DNA of 64,000 nucleotides from Bradyrhizobium nitroreducens. Its GTDB lineage: Bacteria > Pseudomonadota > Alphaproteobacteria > Rhizobiales > Xanthobacteraceae. The translations under genes were made by a program, and so were the position numbers. Below, piece by piece: positions 48,975 to 56,432 of the stretch. The DNA lies in contig NZ_LFJC01000003.1 in NCBI RefSeq assembly GCF_002776695.1, positions 4,512,896 through 4,576,895 of the forward strand. Direction: 5' to 3'. Each line of letters begins with the position of its first letter. Within the stretch, counting starts at the first letter, position 1. The notes under the pieces were generated by a model. The model had not been told where the DNA came from, ran no database searches, and saw only the letters and a list, made by a program, of their open reading frames with translations.

Positions 48975-49415
48975 TTAGCCGACGCTGGTCATCTTCGGCA
49001 GATGAATGGCGCGGCCGAGTGCCTGCTCGACGAGGTCGAACGTGTCGATCAGGACGCGCATGCTGACGAGCTTGTCCGCCCTGAACTGGGCGAACTGCGC
49101 GACCCGCAAGCTGATCGGCTTGTTGGAATCCAGCGCCGTCAGCGAATAGCGCACCATCGAGGCGGCGGAATCGACGCCGAGCATGATGCTCTCGCGGTCG
49201 AAGCGGCGGACCCTGAAATTGTCGGCGAGCTGGCGGATGACGTCGAGCACGGCGTCGTTGCCCTGGCGCGCGCCGAGGAACGGAAACATGTCGATCGGGC
49301 CGTACAGCGCCCACTCGACGTCCTCGTCGATCAGGGCCTCGATATCCGCGAAATGCCGGTCGTTGATCGCACGGTGCAACGCGCGCGAGAAACGCCAGAG
49401 GCTGTGCTCTGTCAT
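48975..49415 (-). CDS. NTF2-like / SnoaL-fold protein
   Basis: A 146-residue cone-fold protein. The helix LHRAINDRHFADIEALIDEDVEWALYGP and late strands AQFAQFRADKLVSMRVLIDTFDLVEQ are typical of SnoaL-like/NTF2 domains. The fold covers isomerases, hydratases and binding proteins, so function cannot be inferred. A second NTF2-like gene lies 230 nt upstream on the same strand, suggesting paralogy. Confidence 0.85.
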   Translation of the reverse strand: MTEHSLWRFSRALHRAINDRHFADIEALIDEDVEWALYGPIDMFPFLGARQGNDAVLDVIRQLADNFRVRRFDRESIMLGVDSAASMVRYSLTALDSNKPISLRVAQFAQFRADKLVSMRVLIDTFDLVEQALGRAIHLPKMTSVG

Positions 49416-49646
49416 CTTGGGCAGTCCTGAAGCTGGCTTTACGGAAAACGGAAAACAACCCCACGCGCACTCGGGCGCCGGGGCTCAACTCATTTGTATA
49501 CGAACAAAATACCCGATTTCGGCCAAAACGCAATTCACGTTTTCGCAATGCACAATTGATGGCGATGTGTGAGATTTGCAATAGAACCCCGTAGTCTCCC
49601 GGGTTCCGGCCGCTCGCGCGCGAGGGTTCCAGCGAAGGGACCTGAC

Positions 49647-50093
49647 TCAGTCCACTCGCGCCCCCGTGATCAACGGCCCGATCTCGCGCTCCAGCACCTG
49701 CTGCACCAGATCGTAGGAATCGATGATCTCGCGGATCTCCGCCACCAGGCCGCCGCGGAAGGTGTAGAACACGGCCATGTCGAACTGCACGATGCGGTCG
49801 TTGCGGCGCTTCCTGAAATAGGCCTGCATGTAGGTCGCGACCGCCTCGCCCTCGGCGACGATGAGCGGCGCCTTGTATCGGATCTCCGAATAGCGCGACC
49901 AGATCGTCTGCCACAGCGCGCGCAATTCGGCCTTGCCGTGGCGCGGCACCATGTGGGGCAGCACGTCGATCGGCGCATGGGTGAGGAAGTCGACGTCGTC
50001 GGTGCAGCACGCCAGCGCGGCCTCGATGTCGCCGCGCGCGAAGGCGTCGAGCAGATGCAGCACGCGTTGCCTGTTCAGCTTCTCAACCGTCAT
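49647..50093 (-). CDS. NTF2-like / SnoaL-fold protein
   Basis: A 148-residue protein with the same fold as its downstream neighbour: LLDAFARGDIEAALACCTDDVDFLTHAP and FYTFRGGLVAEIREIIDSYDLVQQVL. Shared features (an Asp/Glu-Val-aromatic-x-His/Tyr-Ala/Gly-Pro start and an Asp-x-Phe/Tyr-Asp-Leu-Val end) suggest a local duplication. ATG 50093 has GGGAG upstream and is preferred to 50126. Confidence 0.85.
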   Translation of the reverse strand: MTVEKLNRQRVLHLLDAFARGDIEAALACCTDDVDFLTHAPIDVLPHMVPRHGKAELRALWQTIWSRYSEIRYKAPLIVAEGEAVATYMQAYFRKRRNDRIVQFDMAVFYTFRGGLVAEIREIIDSYDLVQQVLEREIGPLITGARVD

Positions 50094-50372
50094 GCTGCTC
50101 CCGCCCTCGTCGGCCGTGGATTGCAAACGCTACCGCGGGCCTCGCGGGTCCATCAATCCGCAAAAACACAGAGTGCTTGCAGCTTATGACGCGCCGGCGC
50201 CATGCCGCGTTCATGGGGGTGCAATTGCGGGTTGCGCAAATGTTCGCGCGCAGGCTTTTGCACCTGGCGATGACGCTGCGCGCCCATCGGCGGGCGCGCC
50301 TGGCCAGGTGCTGGAACCCGGACCCATCCGCGTTCGTTGAAGGTCCAGCGTCGCATCCGGAGACATCGATCC

Positions 50373-50882: not shown

Positions 50883-51205
50883 CGCAGCCCCCCCCCGCTG
50901 GGGGCGGGGCTATCGCATTTGTCGCTTTGCGCGAGCTGAGCGCGCGCCTCGTCCTTCGAGACGACCGCTTCGCGGTCCCTCAGGATGAGGCCAAGCGGCA
51001 TTACCGCCCGTTGAACTCGCGCAACGCACTCGGTCCTCATCCTGAGGGCCCGCCAAAGGCGGGCGTCTCGAAGGATGGCCACGGGCGGTATCATTTCTAT
51101 GCGATTGCCTGCCCCCGGCTGGGAGGGGCCAATGCGTGAGCCAACTCACATCCCAGGCCTCACCCTGCGGCTATCGTCATCCCCATGTCATCAGGGAGAC
51201 GTGCC
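50883..51205. repeat. Gene-free gap with CATCCTGAGGAG-family repeat
   Basis: A G-run hairpin (CCCCCGCTGGGGGCGGGG) at about 50888-50908 is followed by a paired repeat at 50947-51080: CCTCGTCCTTCGAGACGACCGC and GGCGTCTCGAAGGATGGCC at the outside, CCTCATCCTGAGGG inside. Related to 33513-33616. Confidence 0.75.
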
Positions 51206-51592
51206 ATGGCTGCCATCGCCACCGCCAGAAAGTCCCGCCTGCACAACGCGATCGAAGGTCTCGCGCTGACCGCGATCCTGCAGAGTTTCCCGACCTTCGC
51301 CGCCGCCGCCTTCCTGCTCAAGCTCTGCGGCAACCACGACCTCTCCGGCGACCCCGGCGTCGCCATCTTCGTCGCCATCGCCTCGCTCGCCCACGCCATG
51401 CTGGCCGTGACCCTCGGCCCGAGCTTTCCGCATTTGTTCAAGACCGTCTACGAGCCGAAATTCTTCGAGGCCCATCTGCCGCTCGCCGACAAGATCACGG
51501 CATGGCGCACCCAGCCGGTCGCCTCGCTGCAGCTGGTGACTATCGTGCTGCTGCTGTCGGTGATGGCGGTGGTGACGGCGAGCGTGGGGTGA
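51206..51592 (+). CDS. Hypothetical integral membrane protein
   Basis: A 128-residue protein with three hydrophobic helices (about 18-38, 50-70 and 104-124). No family recognised. The ATG at 51206 follows GGGAGA; the frame's earlier ATG (51185) has no ribosome-binding site. It is the last gene before the 800-nt repeat region. Confidence 0.78.
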   Translation: MAAIATARKSRLHNAIEGLALTAILQSFPTFAAAAFLLKLCGNHDLSGDPGVAIFVAIASLAHAMLAVTLGPSFPHLFKTVYEPKFFEAHLPLADKITAWRTQPVASLQLVTIVLLLSVMAVVTASVG

Positions 51593-52400
51593 GGGGTGCG
51601 CCCGCAACAACGAATGTGTCGTGAAGACATCGCTCGATCCCTTGCCTCTTTCATGACAGGCACACCTCCGCGTTCCCGCGGCGCGTTTCGCCCGGGCTTT
51701 GCCTGGTCGCGCGCCCTGATTGATAGAGAGGGCGCAGGGAAGGCCGGGAGCCGATTGGCTCCCGTGGCCGCCTGTGCAAAAGGTAGTCTGCGTGTGCAGG
51801 CACAGGCGGAAGACCACAGGGCAACCGGGACATCCCGGCCTTCCCTGCGCGATGGTTGGAACGGCTTATGTCGCGCTCTCCCCGGGGAGCGTTGCACTAT
51901 TGCCCCCGTCACCTCGCGGATCACCGACACGCCGGCCCGGTTGGGCCGCTCATGTCACCGCAAGACTTGGCGCCAGAGCCCCGGGCGCCAGGACCACACG
52001 ATTTTGCCGTACACGCATCCCACTTGTCGAAAGCGCGCCGTCCTGCTCACGGTTGCCCGCCCTGCAAAACCTCTCGCGCCAATGGGACCCGTGTCCACCG
52101 CCGCCCGGCCCCATGTCGTGACGATCGCGATACGCCCTCTCCGTGGGCCGGAGTGAGCGAGACATACGATAATTCCGAATTTCGGTAAAGTGGAATATTT
52201 TTCCGGGGAGGTGTTGACGCGTCGGGCAAAACAGTGCGTGGGGAGGGGGCGGATCACGCCGCGCCGTCATTGCGAGGAGCTCAGCGACAAAATTGCGTAG
52301 CAATTTTGCGCAGATGCGACGAGGCAATCCAGACTGTTGCTGCGGAGCGATTCTGGGTTGCTTCGCTGCGCTCGCAACGACAGAGCAAGAACCGCCGGAG
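51593..52400. repeat. Non-coding, highly structured repeat element
   Basis: About 600 nt (roughly 51600-52225) carries no credible gene. An 18-bp perfect inverted repeat (51732-51749 with 51833-51850, starting GCGCAGGGAAGG) encloses at least two inner hairpins: GGGAGCC-GATT-GGCTCCC (51746-51763) and CCGCCTGTGC with GCACAGGCGG (51768-51777 and 51800-51809). I recall similar segments recurring in Bradyrhizobium genomes, often mis-annotated as small proteins, but this was not checked. From 52266 to 52381 lies a second, shorter repeat (GTCATTGCGAGGAGC). Confidence 0.75.
52266..52381. repeat. Palindromic repeat (GTCATTGCGAG family)
   Basis: Starts GTCATTGCGAGGAGCTC, contains the hairpin AAAATTGCGTAGCAATTTT, and ends CTGCGCTCGCAACGACAG. 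A relative is at 59399-59477. Confidence 0.85.
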
Positions 52401-52682
52401 TCACTCCGACGGATATGAGCGCAGAAATTCCCTGGCAGCGTCTCGTGTTGGAAAACGACCAAGCTCCTTGTAGTCGGGATCGTCTTCCGCCTCGTCGGAC
52501 GACCGCAGCACGACGAACTTGCCGCCGTCCTCCACGATCAATTCCGTCAAGTTCTCGCTGTTGAGAGGCGACATGTCGCGGAAGCCGCAGTGCGGGCATT
52601 CGTCGTCGCAGGTGCACGACCATTCATCGGTCCATGTCTTCCGGCAGCGGTCGCAGCGATAGATGTTCAGGAACCAGGCCAT
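52401..52682 (-). CDS. Small zinc-ribbon-like acidic protein
   Basis: A 93-residue protein. Residues 9-36 contain six cysteines in CxxC-like pairs (YRCDRCRK, WSCTCDDECPHCGF), a likely zinc site. The rest is acidic (SSDEAEDDPDYKELG) with a small helical C-terminus (TRDAAREFLRSY). I recall similar proteins being widespread in Rhizobiales, with unknown function. Its start is 8 nt past the stop of the DpnI-like gene, so the two are probably co-transcribed. ATG chosen at 52682 (MAWFLNIY). Confidence 0.8.
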   Translation of the reverse strand: MAWFLNIYRCDRCRKTWTDEWSCTCDDECPHCGFRDMSPLNSENLTELIVEDGGKFVVLRSSDEAEDDPDYKELGRFPTRDAAREFLRSYPSE

Positions 52683-52690
52683 GGCGCCCC

Positions 52691-53458
52691 TCACGATTTC
52701 AGACGGTAGTTGCCGCGAGACAAGAACTCGATGAAGCCATGATCACGCAAATACTGAAGTTGCTGACGAATCTTCGGCCGGACGTTCTGGTTGCCGGGAT
52801 AGAGGTCGCCGAGGTGGCGATCGAACGCGTAGATGTCGTCGAGTGTAAAGTCGCGCCGGCCCAGCGATTCCACGCATTTCAATACGTCCAATAGCCAGCC
52901 GCGAGCTTCCAGCGACTTGTCCCGCAGAAAGAGCGTCTTCTTCCATTCCTCCAGGACCACCTCTTTCGCCCGGATCACGCCGTTCTGAACAATGTGAATC
53001 TTCCCGGACTCCGGGACTTTGCTCAGAAGGATATTCGATCCGATCCAGCCCGCACGCCGCGCTGTCGTTGCGAGTGGCTTTCTTTCCTGAATGATCTCGG
53101 GAACGAAAAAGTGTTTCGGCACGATGAAGAGATTTACGACGGCGAGCGAGGTGCGATCGTAGTTCATCAATAGGAGATTCGGGTTGTTGCTCGCGGTAAG
53201 CCGCTCGCACTTCGTCTTGTAGGCGCCGTCCGACACCTTCGGTCCGAACTTCCTCTTCTGACTCTTGAGTTCAAACTCCTCCTCGCAGGACGTGCAGCGA
53301 AAGTCAGCGACCGGGCTGTTGTTGGGAAATTGCGATATCTCTGCGCTGCCGCAATGCGGGCAGTAGGCCCAGGCTCTTACCCACGCTTCCGTCCATGCAC
53401 GAGCGCTCTGTGTGCCGCTTGCATAGGGCGACTGGGTCTCTTCGAAGCCGAGTTTCAT
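52691..53458 (-). CDS. DpnI-like methyl-directed restriction endonuclease
   Basis: A 255-residue protein aligning along its length with DpnI, a Type IIM enzyme that cuts GATC only when the adenine is methylated. The PD-(D/E)xK site reads PVADF...EEFELKSQK with Asp52, Glu63 and Lys65, each one residue before DpnI's Asp53, Glu64 and Lys66. The zinc cysteines are CPHC (33, 36) and CTSC (55, 58). TTARRAGWIGSN matches the DpnI stretch containing its conserved Trp, and the C-terminal winged helix ends with IRQQLQYLRDHGFIEFLSRG, close to DpnI. G+C is near 52% in sampled lines against about 65% around it, indicating transfer. It starts 40 nt behind uvrB. Confidence 0.95.
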   Translation of the reverse strand: MKLGFEETQSPYASGTQSARAWTEAWVRAWAYCPHCGSAEISQFPNNSPVADFRCTSCEEEFELKSQKRKFGPKVSDGAYKTKCERLTASNNPNLLLMNYDRTSLAVVNLFIVPKHFFVPEIIQERKPLATTARRAGWIGSNILLSKVPESGKIHIVQNGVIRAKEVVLEEWKKTLFLRDKSLEARGWLLDVLKCVESLGRRDFTLDDIYAFDRHLGDLYPGNQNVRPKIRQQLQYLRDHGFIEFLSRGNYRLKS

Positions 53459-53498
53459 GCAGCTAGCGTAACGAAACTCGTCCGAATTGCCAGTAGCC

Positions 53499-56432
53499 CT
53501 ACCTCTTCTTCCACCCGCCCCGTCGCCCCGGCATCCCGCCCGTCGACTTCGGCGCGGGCCCGAACTCCGGGCCCGACTGCCGCGAGTCCGTCGGCTGGAT
53601 GATGCGGCTGGTGCTGCCGAACGGTTTTGCCGGCAGGCTCGGCTTCTCGCGATAGGGCAGCGATTCCGGGCCGTGCATCTCGTCGAGATGCGGCTTGTGC
53701 ACCTTCGAGCCGCTGCCGCCGCCGCTGGCTTTCAGCGCGGAGCTGACGGTCTTCTTCTTCATGGCGCTGACCGGCAGGTTGGCGGCGTCCCCGTACTTCT
53801 TGGCTCCGGCATAGGCACCGGCCTTGCCCGCCACCGCGCGCTGTTTGGCGGTGGGATCGTCCACCACGGCGAGCTCCGTCGCGCGCAGGCGCTTGACTTC
53901 GTCGCGGAGGCGGGCGGCTTCCTCGAAGTTCAGGTCGGCGGCGGCCTCGCGCATGCGCGTTTCCAGATCGGCGAGCACGGCTTCGAAATTGTGGCCGATC
54001 GAGATGACGTCGTCGGTCATGTCGTGGCCGCCGACCTCGACCAGCACGTGGTCGCGCTCGTAGACGGAGTTGAGGATGTCGCCGATCTGCTTCTTCACGC
54101 TCTCCGGCGTGATGCCGTTGGCGGTGTTGTACTCGACCTGCTTCTCGCGGCGGCGGTTGGTTTCCGCGATGGCGCGCTCCATCGAGCCCGTCATCTGGTC
54201 GGCATAGAGGATCACCTTGCCGTCGACGTTGCGCGCGGCGCGGCCGATGGTCTGAATCAAGGACGTTTCACTGCGCAAAAAACCTTCCTTGTCGGCATCG
54301 AGAATCGCGACCAGGGCGCATTCGGGAATGTCGAGGCCTTCGCGCAAGAGGTTGATGCCGACCAGCGCGTCGAAGGCGCCGAGACGCAAGTCGCGGATGA
54401 TCTCGATGCGCTCGATGGTGTCGATGTCGCTGTGCATGTAGCGGACGCGAATGCCCTGCTCGTGCAGATATTCGGTGAGGTCCTCCGCCATGCGTTTTGT
54501 GAGAACCGTGATCAGCGAGCGATAGCCGGCCTGCGCGGTGGCGCGGACCTCGCCGACGAGGTCGTCGACCTGGGTGCGGGCGGGCCGGATATCGACGGGC
54601 GGATCGATCAAGCCGGTAGGGCGAATGACCTGCTCGACGAACACGCCGCCGCTCTCGTTCAGCTCCCAGCCGCTCGGCGTCGCCGACACCGCGACCGTCT
54701 GCGGCCGCATCATGTCCCATTCCTCGAAGCGGAGCGGGCGGTTGTCCATGCAGGAGGGCAGGCGGAAGCCGTACTCGGCCAGCGTCGCCTTGCGGCGGAA
54801 GTCGCCGCGGAACATGGCGCCGATCTGCGGGATGGTGACGTGGCTTTCGTCGGCGAAGATCAGCGCGTTGTCGGGCACGTACTCGAACAGCGTCGGCGGC
54901 GGCTCGCCGGGCCGGCGGCCGGTGAGATAGCGCGAATAGTTCTCGATGCCGGCGCAGCTGCCCGTCGCCTCCATCATCTCGAGGTCGAAGGTGGTGCGCT
55001 GCTCCAGCCGCTGCGCTTCCAGGAGGCGCCCCTGGTTGTTGAGCTGATCGAGCCGCAGCTTCAACTCTGACTTGATCGACTTGATCGCCTGCACCAGCGT
55101 CGGGCGCGGCGTCACATAGTGCGAGTTGGCGTACATCTTGATGAATTCGAGCTCGTCCTGCTTGTGGCCGGTGAGCGGATCGAACTCCTCGATGGTCTCG
55201 ATGGTGTCGCCGAACAGGTTCACGCGCCAGGCGCGGTCCTCATAGTGAGCCGGGAAAATATCGATCACATCGCCGCGCACGCGAAAAGTGCCGCGGGTAA
55301 AGTCGGCCTGGGTGCGCTTGTACTGGAGCGCGACCAGGTCGGCGATCAGCTGGCGCTGGTCGATGCGCTCGCCCTTCTTCAGCGCGAAGGTCATCGCGGT
55401 GTAGGTCTCGACCGAGCCGATACCGTAGATGCAGGACACCGAGGCGACGATGATGACGTCGTCGCGTTCGAGCAGCGCGCGCGTCGCGGAGTGGCGCATG
55501 CGGTCGATCTGCTCGTTGATCGAGGAGTCCTTCTCGATATAGGTGTCGGTGCGCGGGACGTAGGCTTCCGGCTGGTAGTAATCGTAATAGGAGACGAAAT
55601 ACTCGACCGCGTTGTCCGGGAAGAAGTTCTTGAACTCGCCATAGAGCTGGGCGGCCAGCGTCTTATTCGGCGCCAGGATCAGCGCCGGGCGCTGCGTCTT
55701 CTCGATCACCTGCGCCATGGTGTAGGTCTTGCCCGAGCCGGTGACGCCGAGCAGCACCTGGGTGCGGTCGTTGCGCTGGATGCCTTCGACCAGCTCGGCG
55801 ATCGCGGTCGGCTGGTCGCCCTTCGGCTCATAGGACGATTTGATCTCGAAGCGCACGCCGCCTTCGGACTTTTCCGGGCGCGGCGGACGGTGCGGCGTCC
55901 AAACCTTGGTGGAGCCGTCGTCCTTGCGGAACTCCGGCCGGCCCTCGCGGATCAGCGACTCCAGCGCCTCCGCGGTCGCCTTGACGCCGAGCGCCTCCAT
56001 CTTGTTGCGCGGCGGACGCGCCAACGCTTCGGCATCGTCCTCCTCGGTGGGCAGGCCGAGCTGCCGCGCCAGTTCCGGATCGAGCGTCGGGATGGTGGCC
56101 GCGGTTCCGTAATTCGCCTGTGGTGCCTCCTCCAGTCCGCCCCCACCCTTTCCCTCCCCCGCACGCGGGGGAGGGTTGGGAGGGGGAGGGAAGTCCTTCG
56201 GCGTCGAGGCCCGCGCGCGATGTGCGGCGGCCTCGCCCCCGGCGCGGCGATCGCGCGAATTATCCGGCGGCGGCTGCAGCCCGGTCCCCGATCCCAGCCC
56301 GGCATCGCCGCGATTGATCGCGGGATTGAGCAGCTCGGCCAGCGCCGGCCCGATCGGCTGCACGTCAGGCCGGTGGGCTTTGGATTTGGGGGATTTGCCG
56401 GATTTTTCGGGGGATGCAGGTTTCTTCGCCAT
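53499..56432 (-). CDS. uvrB: UvrABC system protein B, with long N- and C-terminal extensions
   Basis: A 977-residue UvrB; the common length is about 670. The canonical protein starts near residue 194 ([17 protein letters not shown]) with the Walker A GVTGSGKT at 229-236, the beta-hairpin region with conserved aromatic residues ([11 protein letters not shown]), motifs IV-VI and a C-terminal UVR domain (about 830-865). The N-terminal 190 residues are low complexity; part of them (about 77-104) is read through a palindromic repeat. A basic C-terminal tail of about 110 residues follows the UVR domain. It partners UvrC, encoded at 19.2-21.2 kb. The DpnI-like gene follows on the same strand. Confidence 0.96.
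56139..56191 (-). repeat. In-frame copy of a palindromic repeat within uvrB
   Basis: CCCTCCCCCGCACGCGGGGGAGGG forms the core of the same CTCCCCGC-type palindrome seen between genes at 26041, 30288, 36401, 58187 and elsewhere. Here it is translated as about residues 81-98 of UvrB ([19 protein letters not shown]). Confidence 0.85.

What the first reader, a model, noticed from the sequence alone, without database searches (positions are those of the whole stretch)
52691..53458. A complete DpnI-like methyl-directed restriction enzyme behind uvrB
The protein shares nearly all of DpnI's fixed points: Asp52, Glu63, Lys65 in PVADF...EEFELKSQK, two CxxC zinc pairs, TTARRAGWIGSN and the winged-helix end. 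Sampled lines are about 52% G+C against about 65% around it, so it looks acquired. Alphaproteobacteria normally use CcrM (GANTC) and lack Dam, so a GmATC-cutting enzyme would not harm the host but would attack incoming DNA from Dam+ bacteria. This could also make the strain resist DNA prepared in Dam+ hosts. No cognate methylase is needed or seen.
Basis: partly seen in the sequence, partly recalled or inferred. Interest (0 to 1): 0.82.

Follow-up and report, generated by a model that had tools for sequence, protein, structure and literature searches.

The report
DpnI-type enzyme in Bradyrhizobium defence slot
A soil bacterium carries a close relative of DpnI, an enzyme that cuts DNA only when it bears certain methyl marks, in a chromosome slot behind a DNA-repair gene where related strains keep other, apparently interchangeable defence-type genes.

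Summary
Window 52691-53458, MINUS strand, encodes a full-length DpnI homologue: 118/245 residues identical to the solved enzyme, with catalytic Asp/Glu/Lys, four zinc Cys and the methyl pocket kept. No D12 or PF05869 (Dam-type) methylase was found in the genome; a CcrM-type one was. So it is most likely a methyl-directed restriction enzyme against Dam-marked DNA: a new member of a known kind.

39 of 265 same-genus genomes hold an orthologue, all 39 behind uvrB and all followed by a small zinc-ribbon gene, 'zn97', whole or in part. In 100 relatives without full dpnI the slot is mostly empty (59) or holds other DNA (34 over 700 bases), including DRT9, BglII-type R-M, NACHT/STAND, AIPR, HerA and, in three genomes, a Dam-family methylase closest to pneumococcal DpnM. 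One keeps the tail of dpnI plus zn97 behind a NACHT pair. The slot resembles the drg/dam locus of Neisseria and the DpnI/DpnII locus of pneumococcus. No activity was tested; the AlphaFold model was poor.

The parts
52691..53458 (-). dpnI homologue, 255 aa: PD-(D/E)xK domain (D52, E63, K65), zinc Cys 33/36/55/58, methyl-pocket L129/R135/W138 with G140, C-terminal winged helix (K229, R231)
52401..52694 (-). 'zn97': conserved partner, 97 aa from GTG at 52694 (alternative ATG at 52682), zinc-ribbon-like CxxC...SCxC...CPxC; overlaps the dpnI stop by 4 bases
   Evidence: no Pfam or NCBIfam family at E 0.001
53499..56432 (-). uvrB, conserved upstream flank of the slot
51593..53498 (.). the variable slot. 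In six of seven relatives compared, DNA homology stops at or within a dozen bases of the uvrB stop and resumes within ten bases of the end of ORF 51185-51592; in the seventh (L091) it resumes already at 52280
51185..51592 (+). conserved convergent ORF (135 aa, no Pfam or NCBIfam family), downstream flank of the slot
48975..50126 (-). two SnoaL-like ORFs (49647-50126 and 48975-49415), conserved further downstream

Best explanation
The gene encodes a DpnI-type methyl-directed restriction endonuclease. Its catalytic domain and its winged helix would each read G6mATC, and the enzyme would cut incoming DNA marked by Dam-type methylases (plasmids, phages, DNA of Dam+ bacteria), while the host, which has a CcrM-type methylase and no Dam-type one found, stays uncut. 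Shown by sequence: homology over the full length, the fixed residues, purifying selection among relatives, no PF02086 or PF05869 match in the genome. Inferred: cutting, specificity, role in defence. With its small zinc-ribbon partner zn97 it forms a two-gene cassette in a chromosomal slot between uvrB and a convergent ORF. Across the genus this slot is empty, or holds this cassette, or holds other restriction and defence-type cargo, without an integrase among the proteins scanned, so the cargo is probably exchanged by homologous recombination in the conserved flanks (inferred).
For: Homology; 118/245 identity to DpnI; D/E/K, four Cys, L129, R135, W138, G140 and Q17 identical in 44 of 44 unique homologues examined. 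L129, R135 and W138 form the methyl cleft in the DpnI-DNA crystal structure (PMC4117772, passages). Selection: median dN/dS 0.05 over the 114 pairs (of at most 741) with dS under 1.2. No PF02086 or PF05869 methylase in the genome; CcrM-type methylase. Slot: 39 of 39 close orthologues of the genus lie behind uvrB. zn97 matches at 80 bits or more in 39 of 39 of these and in 2 of the other 226 genomes (Fisher 1e-44); one of those two keeps a dpnI remnant. Of 100 relatives without full dpnI, 59 have 200 bases or less between uvrB and the next conserved gene, 5 have 201-700, 34 have more, 2 undetermined. Cargo. No mobile carrier seen: in 72,556 plasmid records the only long matches are two 2.2-Mb N. 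gonorrhoeae records (41%), which look like chromosomes, plus four winged-helix-only matches; in 50,697 phage records one partial match (33% covered); none in viral contigs.
Against: No biochemical test. The AlphaFold2 model is unreliable for the catalytic domain; only about residues 191-255 are fairly confident. PF05869 matches occur in 2 of 39 orthologue-bearing genomes (G119 72.9 bits, partial; G066 37.2 bits), and D12 matches in 5 of the 39 (G091, G092, G231, G239, G256). G091 and G092 score 85 and 78 against the Dam-family model, under its cut-off of 114.85, and G239 does not match it; G231 and G256 were not scanned. If any of these marks GATC, the enzyme must be silent or tolerated there. 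At least 4 of the 39 genus copies are broken (G010, G053, G232, G202), so the gene is dispensable. The own genome has a PF02384 methylase of unknown target and a second, weak PF01555 match. Two copies of zn97 are partial (G066, G092). No recombination joint was shown.
Confidence: 0.88

Rival explanations
1. It is a DpnI fold with a changed target: a 6mA-dependent nuclease that reads another methylated motif, or a methyl-reading regulator rather than a barrier to DNA.
For: Only homology speaks for GmATC. A role in gene expression has been suggested for the gonococcal relative Drg, whose loss alters expression of many genes (PMC4269198, abstract and passages).
Against: Every pocket and catalytic residue tested is identical to DpnI. 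Gonococcal Drg gave the same digestion pattern as DpnI on dam+ plasmid and did not cut dam- plasmid (PMC4269198, passages); a gonococcal homologue, presumably Drg, is 41.4% identical to the window protein (tblastn), no closer than DpnI (48%, MAFFT).
Confidence: 0.07
2. A recently acquired stray gene without a role in this strain.
For: Low G+C (56.4% against 65.5%); patchy presence (42 of 265); broken copies in some relatives.
Against: Same slot and same partner in 39 of 39 orthologues; strong purifying selection among relatives (pairs with the window gene itself were too diverged to be counted); dpnI and uvrB trees that share larger clades with some conflicts; zn97 remnants behind uvrB in genomes without dpnI.
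Confidence: 0.05

Closest known systems
R.DpnI of Streptococcus pneumoniae (PDB 4esj, 4kyw)
   Same: Full-length homology, 118/245 identity, all tested catalytic, zinc and methyl-pocket residues
   Different: The neighbour gene is zn97. The pneumococcal neighbour is dpnD (name seen in primer names of PMC3573125; second gene of the cassette by recall); the two were not compared directly. Different chromosomal site.
Drg / NmeBII, the dam-replacing gene of Neisseria
   Same: DpnI-type enzyme active on GmATC only, low G+C, beside a conserved housekeeping gene where some strains hold dam instead (PMC4269198, passages)
   Different: There the flank is leuS and drg is in several strains inserted in dam itself; here the flank is uvrB and the alternatives include unrelated defence-type genes
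Pneumococcal DpnI/DpnII alternative systems
   Same: Two complementary systems at a common chromosomal location (PMC3573125, passages); here a Dam-family methylase, closest to DpnM among solved structures (tested for the G223 protein), sits in the same slot of three relatives
   Different: GATC specificity of that methylase is not shown; it comes with DndB/DGQHR-like proteins, and no DpnII-type nuclease was noticed
Core defence hotspots (Pseudomonas aeruginosa)
   Same: Varied defence genes at fixed core sites (PMC10250203, search listing only)
   Different: Small cargo of about one to four genes, at uvrB, in Bradyrhizobium

Membership tests
DpnI family (PF06044 + PF17726) | Both domains over the curated cut-off, full length | tested here: met
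DpnI family (PF06044 + PF17726) | PD-(D/E)xK residues of DpnI (D53, E64, K66; numbers recalled, positions by alignment) | tested here: met
   D52, E63, K65; 44 of 44 homologues
DpnI family (PF06044 + PF17726) | Two CxxC zinc pairs | tested here: met
   44 of 44 at all four Cys; zinc binding itself not tested
DpnI family (PF06044 + PF17726) | Methyl-binding cleft L129, R135, W138, with G140 | tested here: met
   44 of 44; roles from PMC4117772 passages
DpnI family (PF06044 + PF17726) | Winged-helix K229 and R231 | tested here: met
   Present in the window; 43 and 42 of 44, the rest gaps, two copies being cut short
DpnI family (PF06044 + PF17726) | Predicted structure with PD-(D/E)xK fold | tested here: inconclusive
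   pLDDT 52.6, pTM 0.38
DpnI family (PF06044 + PF17726) | Cuts GmATC only when methylated | not testable with these tools
   needs a bench assay
DpnI family (PF06044 + PF17726) | Host without GATC methylase | tested here: met
   0 PF02086 and 0 PF05869 in the own genome; other methylase families only partly covered (one search had no ringing control)
Minimal mobile element (cassette between conserved flanking genes; definition as in PMC4269198) | Conserved flanks, variable content | tested here: met
Minimal mobile element (cassette between conserved flanking genes; definition as in PMC4269198) | No mobility gene of its own | tested here: inconclusive
   no integrase or transposase among 24 cargo proteins scanned with Pfam; 15 of 34 large inserts were not read
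Minimal mobile element (cassette between conserved flanking genes; definition as in PMC4269198) | Exchange by homologous recombination in the flanks | not tested
   inferred; dpnI and uvrB trees conflict in places
DpnI/DpnII-type alternative cassettes | GATC methylase at the same locus in other strains | tested here: inconclusive
   Dam-family methylase at the slot in G130, G145, G223; closest solved structure DpnM; target untested

The most novel reading that the evidence does not exclude
The uvrB slot of Bradyrhizobium is a third, independent place, after pneumococcus and Neisseria, where a GmATC-cutting cassette and a GATC-marking cassette replace each other, so that neighbouring strains are mutually incompatible for DNA exchange; and zn97 is a new, dedicated partner of DpnI-type enzymes (for instance a regulator or activity modulator).
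Probability: 0.35. Interest if true: 0.62.

Novelty: new member of a known kind. Interest (0 to 1): 0.45.

Why it matters
Practically, strains with this gene should reject plasmid DNA made in ordinary Dam+ E. coli, a testable cause of poor transformation in a genus whose members nodulate legumes. Biologically, it shows a DpnI cassette kept at one chromosomal slot across a genus, with an undescribed partner gene, and points to the uvrB flank as a place to look for further defence genes: several inserts there match no Pfam family.

Tried and rejected
Structure prediction with 18 close homologues gave a poor model, so no fold search was run; the fold rests on 48% identity to the solved enzyme.

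Mutual exclusion of DpnI and Dam-family methylases is not significant: 7 of the 12 D12 proteins scanned pass the Dam-family cut-off, none of those 7 genomes has DpnI, chance 0.32; the rest of the 36 D12-positive genomes were not scanned with that model. Fourfold-site divergence of dpnI against uvrB was set aside: uvrB has a higher third-position G+C (0.89 against 0.73), so the comparison does not separate lateral from vertical descent. The MT-A70 search in the own genome had no ringing control and shows nothing. The dN/dS figure leaves out five sequences (L018, L033, L034, L070, L088) and all pairs with dS of 1.2 or more, which includes every pair with the window gene. The trees leave out 8 of 44 sequences (L009, L018, L033, L034, L086-L088 and one too short) and used the quick method.

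The 100 regions are not a random sample: 99 come from the uvrB list, which printed only the best part of the matches of 254 genomes, one (G223) from its methylase hit, and genomes with full dpnI were left out. Of the 34 inserts over 700 bases, 19 were read. Eleven hold proteins of restriction, defence or sensor-type families (L091, L092, L095, L096, L101, L106, L107, L133, L166, L167, L181). Of the other 8, five gave no Pfam family for the protein scanned (L097, L115, L124, L158, L174), L155 gave a Ham1-like match, and L170 and L176 were not scanned.

Literature: only part of long listings was shown (20 of 32 papers, 12 of 246).

Full report
Observation. The ORF at 52691-53458 lies on the minus strand and is 255 aa long. 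Pfam DpnI and DpnI_C both match far above their cut-offs, PADLOC names it mREase_II, and the one solved relative found is DpnI itself, aligned over residues 7-252. A residue check on 44 unique homologues, the window's included, shows D, E, K, the four cysteines, L129, R135, W138 and G140 in all 44. L129, R135 and W138 form the methyl cleft of the DpnI-DNA complex (PMC4117772, passages). The gene has 56.4% G+C against 65.5% for the window.

Host context. The genome is 8.2 Mb in 15 contigs. I take it as Bradyrhizobium because same-genus genome G082 has a dpnI identical to, on a contig as long as, a record titled Bradyrhizobium neotropicale. It has no PF02086 and no PF05869 match, while E. coli rang in both controls. 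It has one strong and one weak PF01555 match; the strong one scores 612.7 bits with NCBI's CcrM model, below that model's cut-off of 830 but over nearly its whole length. It also has one PF02384 methylase of unknown target. In B. diazoefficiens the methylated motifs found by PacBio were GANTC, CRAGGAT, a type I motif pair and CCTTGAG; GATC does not occur in the main text of that paper (PMC4840208, passages).

Distribution. DpnI-family matches occur in 42 of 265 genus genomes (41 over the cut-off) and in 8 of 397 genomes drawn from the order, 2 of them of the same genus. Of the 42, three (G040, G061, G174) show no uvrB in the 16 kb fetched around them; G174 aligns at 30% and the other two gave no tblastn match to the window protein. 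The other 39 all lie downstream of uvrB on its strand, from about 40 bases to 3.3 kb away. At least four are broken: G010 by frameshifts, G053 without its first part, G232 split, G202 with an early stop. Among the 114 pairs (of at most 741) with dS under 1.2 the median dN/dS is 0.05. Trees of dpnI and uvrB for 36 sequences share larger clades, such as the window's group, and differ in places: L010 pairs with L194 in uvrB but with L014 in dpnI. So the gene is probably old at this site, with loss and some lateral exchange.

Partner. A 97-aa ORF follows dpnI and overlaps its stop. A genus search finds it at 80 bits or more in all 39 orthologue-bearing genomes (partial in G066 and G092) and in 2 of the other 226 (Fisher 1e-44); 55 of 265 genomes match at E 1e-8, most of the weaker ones over the zinc-ribbon part alone. 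One of the two, G123, keeps about the last 73 bases of dpnI next to it; the other, G165, has a partial copy 3 kb behind uvrB. Shorter remnants sit behind uvrB in G229 and G117, and G114 has one near another gene of this region, without uvrB in the 14 kb fetched. Outside the genus the pair occurs together in L033 (59% and 44%; no uvrB match in the 1.5 kb on either side) and L087 (71% and 53%; none in 8 kb upstream); L034 and L088 have DpnI without a zn97 match. Twenty aligned copies share six cysteines. It has no Pfam or NCBIfam family. Its function is unknown; a role with DpnI is inferred from linkage.

Slot. The upstream flank is uvrB (1074.2 bits). In four relatives with an empty site (L093, L094, L103, L105) DNA homology to the window stops at or within a dozen bases of the uvrB stop and resumes within ten bases of the end of ORF 51185-51592; the same holds for L092 and L106, while L091 shares the stretch from 52280 on. 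Of 100 regions from relatives without full dpnI, 59 have 200 bases or less behind uvrB before the next conserved gene, 5 have 201-700, 34 more, 2 undetermined. I read 19 of the 34. Found there: DRT9 reverse transcriptase (519.5 bits); MT-A70 methylase with a BglII-type endonuclease and an HNH protein (L095), and AIPR with a BglII-type endonuclease in L166; NACHT proteins (L092, L107), with a PolyA_pol-type protein in L092 and a look-alike in L107; nSTAND1 and HerA; a DACNV sensor with a weak DAC match (L181); and in G130, G145 and G223 a Dam-family methylase (TIGR00571 234.7-242 bits against a cut-off of 114.85) with DndB/DGQHR-like proteins. The G223 methylase is closest among solved structures to DpnM of the pneumococcal DpnII system (171.2 bits), ahead of E. 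coli Dam (108.7). Genomes whose uvrB segment is 99% identical to the window's differ in the slot: G130 carries the Dam-family cassette, G172 the NACHT pair, G103 and G044 none of these (gaps of 94 and 81 bases).

Meaning. Both known parallels have the same shape. Pneumococci hold DpnI or DpnII at a common location (PMC3573125, passages). Neisseria hold drg or dam beside leuS, described as reminiscent of minimal mobile elements (PMC4269198, passages). The Bradyrhizobium slot fits this pattern, with a wider range of cargo. Whether its Dam-family methylase marks GATC is open. Against strict exclusion, two orthologue-bearing genomes hold PF05869 matches and five hold D12 matches; of the three scanned, none passes the Dam-family cut-off.

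Literature. Searches for DpnI with Bradyrhizobium (20 of 32 papers listed), for uvrB with defence hotspots (12 of 246 listed), for defence islands with Bradyrhizobium (one paper) and for methyl-directed enzymes with Alphaproteobacteria (three papers) showed no paper that by its listing describes this gene or slot. Of these I opened only PMC4269198 (passages). A recent paper on winged-helix nucleases does not contain the words Bradyrhizobium or Alphaproteobacteria (PMC11037411, passages). Subscription papers and REBASE are not covered. Annotated homologues very likely exist in public databases, so the enzyme is not new; the slot and the partner may be.

Verdict. A real, probably active DpnI-type enzyme: new member of a known kind. 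The exchangeable slot and the partner raise its interest somewhat.

Noticed in passing
L091, L106, L133 (behind uvrB): A cassette of Dam-family methylase, one or two DndB/DGQHR-like proteins (a long one of 766-781 aa in L091 and L133) and a small membrane-type protein, in changing order; may be an undescribed R-M or defence system.
   Followed up: partly
L035:1471-1935 (-), L036:1498-2115 (-), L037:1510-2037 (-), L202:7743-8192 (+), L203:7621-8187 (-): Short DpnI-like proteins without the winged helix; they keep the cysteine pairs, the Asp, the Lys and the Trp of RxGW, but read Gln where DpnI has its catalytic Glu.
   Followed up: partly
L096:124-1635 (-): DRT9-type reverse transcriptase (519.5 bits) directly behind uvrB in a relative.
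   Followed up: partly
L095:3998-5550; L166:1400-3102: BglII-type endonuclease beside an MT-A70 methylase (the L166 one judged by resemblance) in the uvrB slot of two relatives.
   Followed up: partly
L181:5251-6981 (+): DACNV sensor domain with a weak DisA-type DAC match in an ORF of the uvrB slot that runs into the flank gene's frame; a possible nucleotide-signal defence gene.
   Followed up: no
Lactiplantibacillus plantarum plasmids, hits H6-H9: A winged helix 53% identical to residues 187-252 of the window protein lies under a feature named sigma-70 family factor in four plasmids: a possible 6mA-reader in another setting.
   Followed up: no
L213 (G119), L214 (G066): PF05869-type methylase matches in two genomes with DpnI; the first lies near an integrase-like ORF, the second among small phage-like ORFs (judged by eye). 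Target unknown.
   Followed up: partly
window 52261-52380: Repeat-like intergenic sequence (CATTGCGAGGAGC...) between zn97 and the convergent ORF; seen by eye only.
   Followed up: no
L097, L115, L124, L158, L174: Inserts behind uvrB whose scanned protein matches no Pfam family: candidates for unknown defence genes.
   Followed up: no
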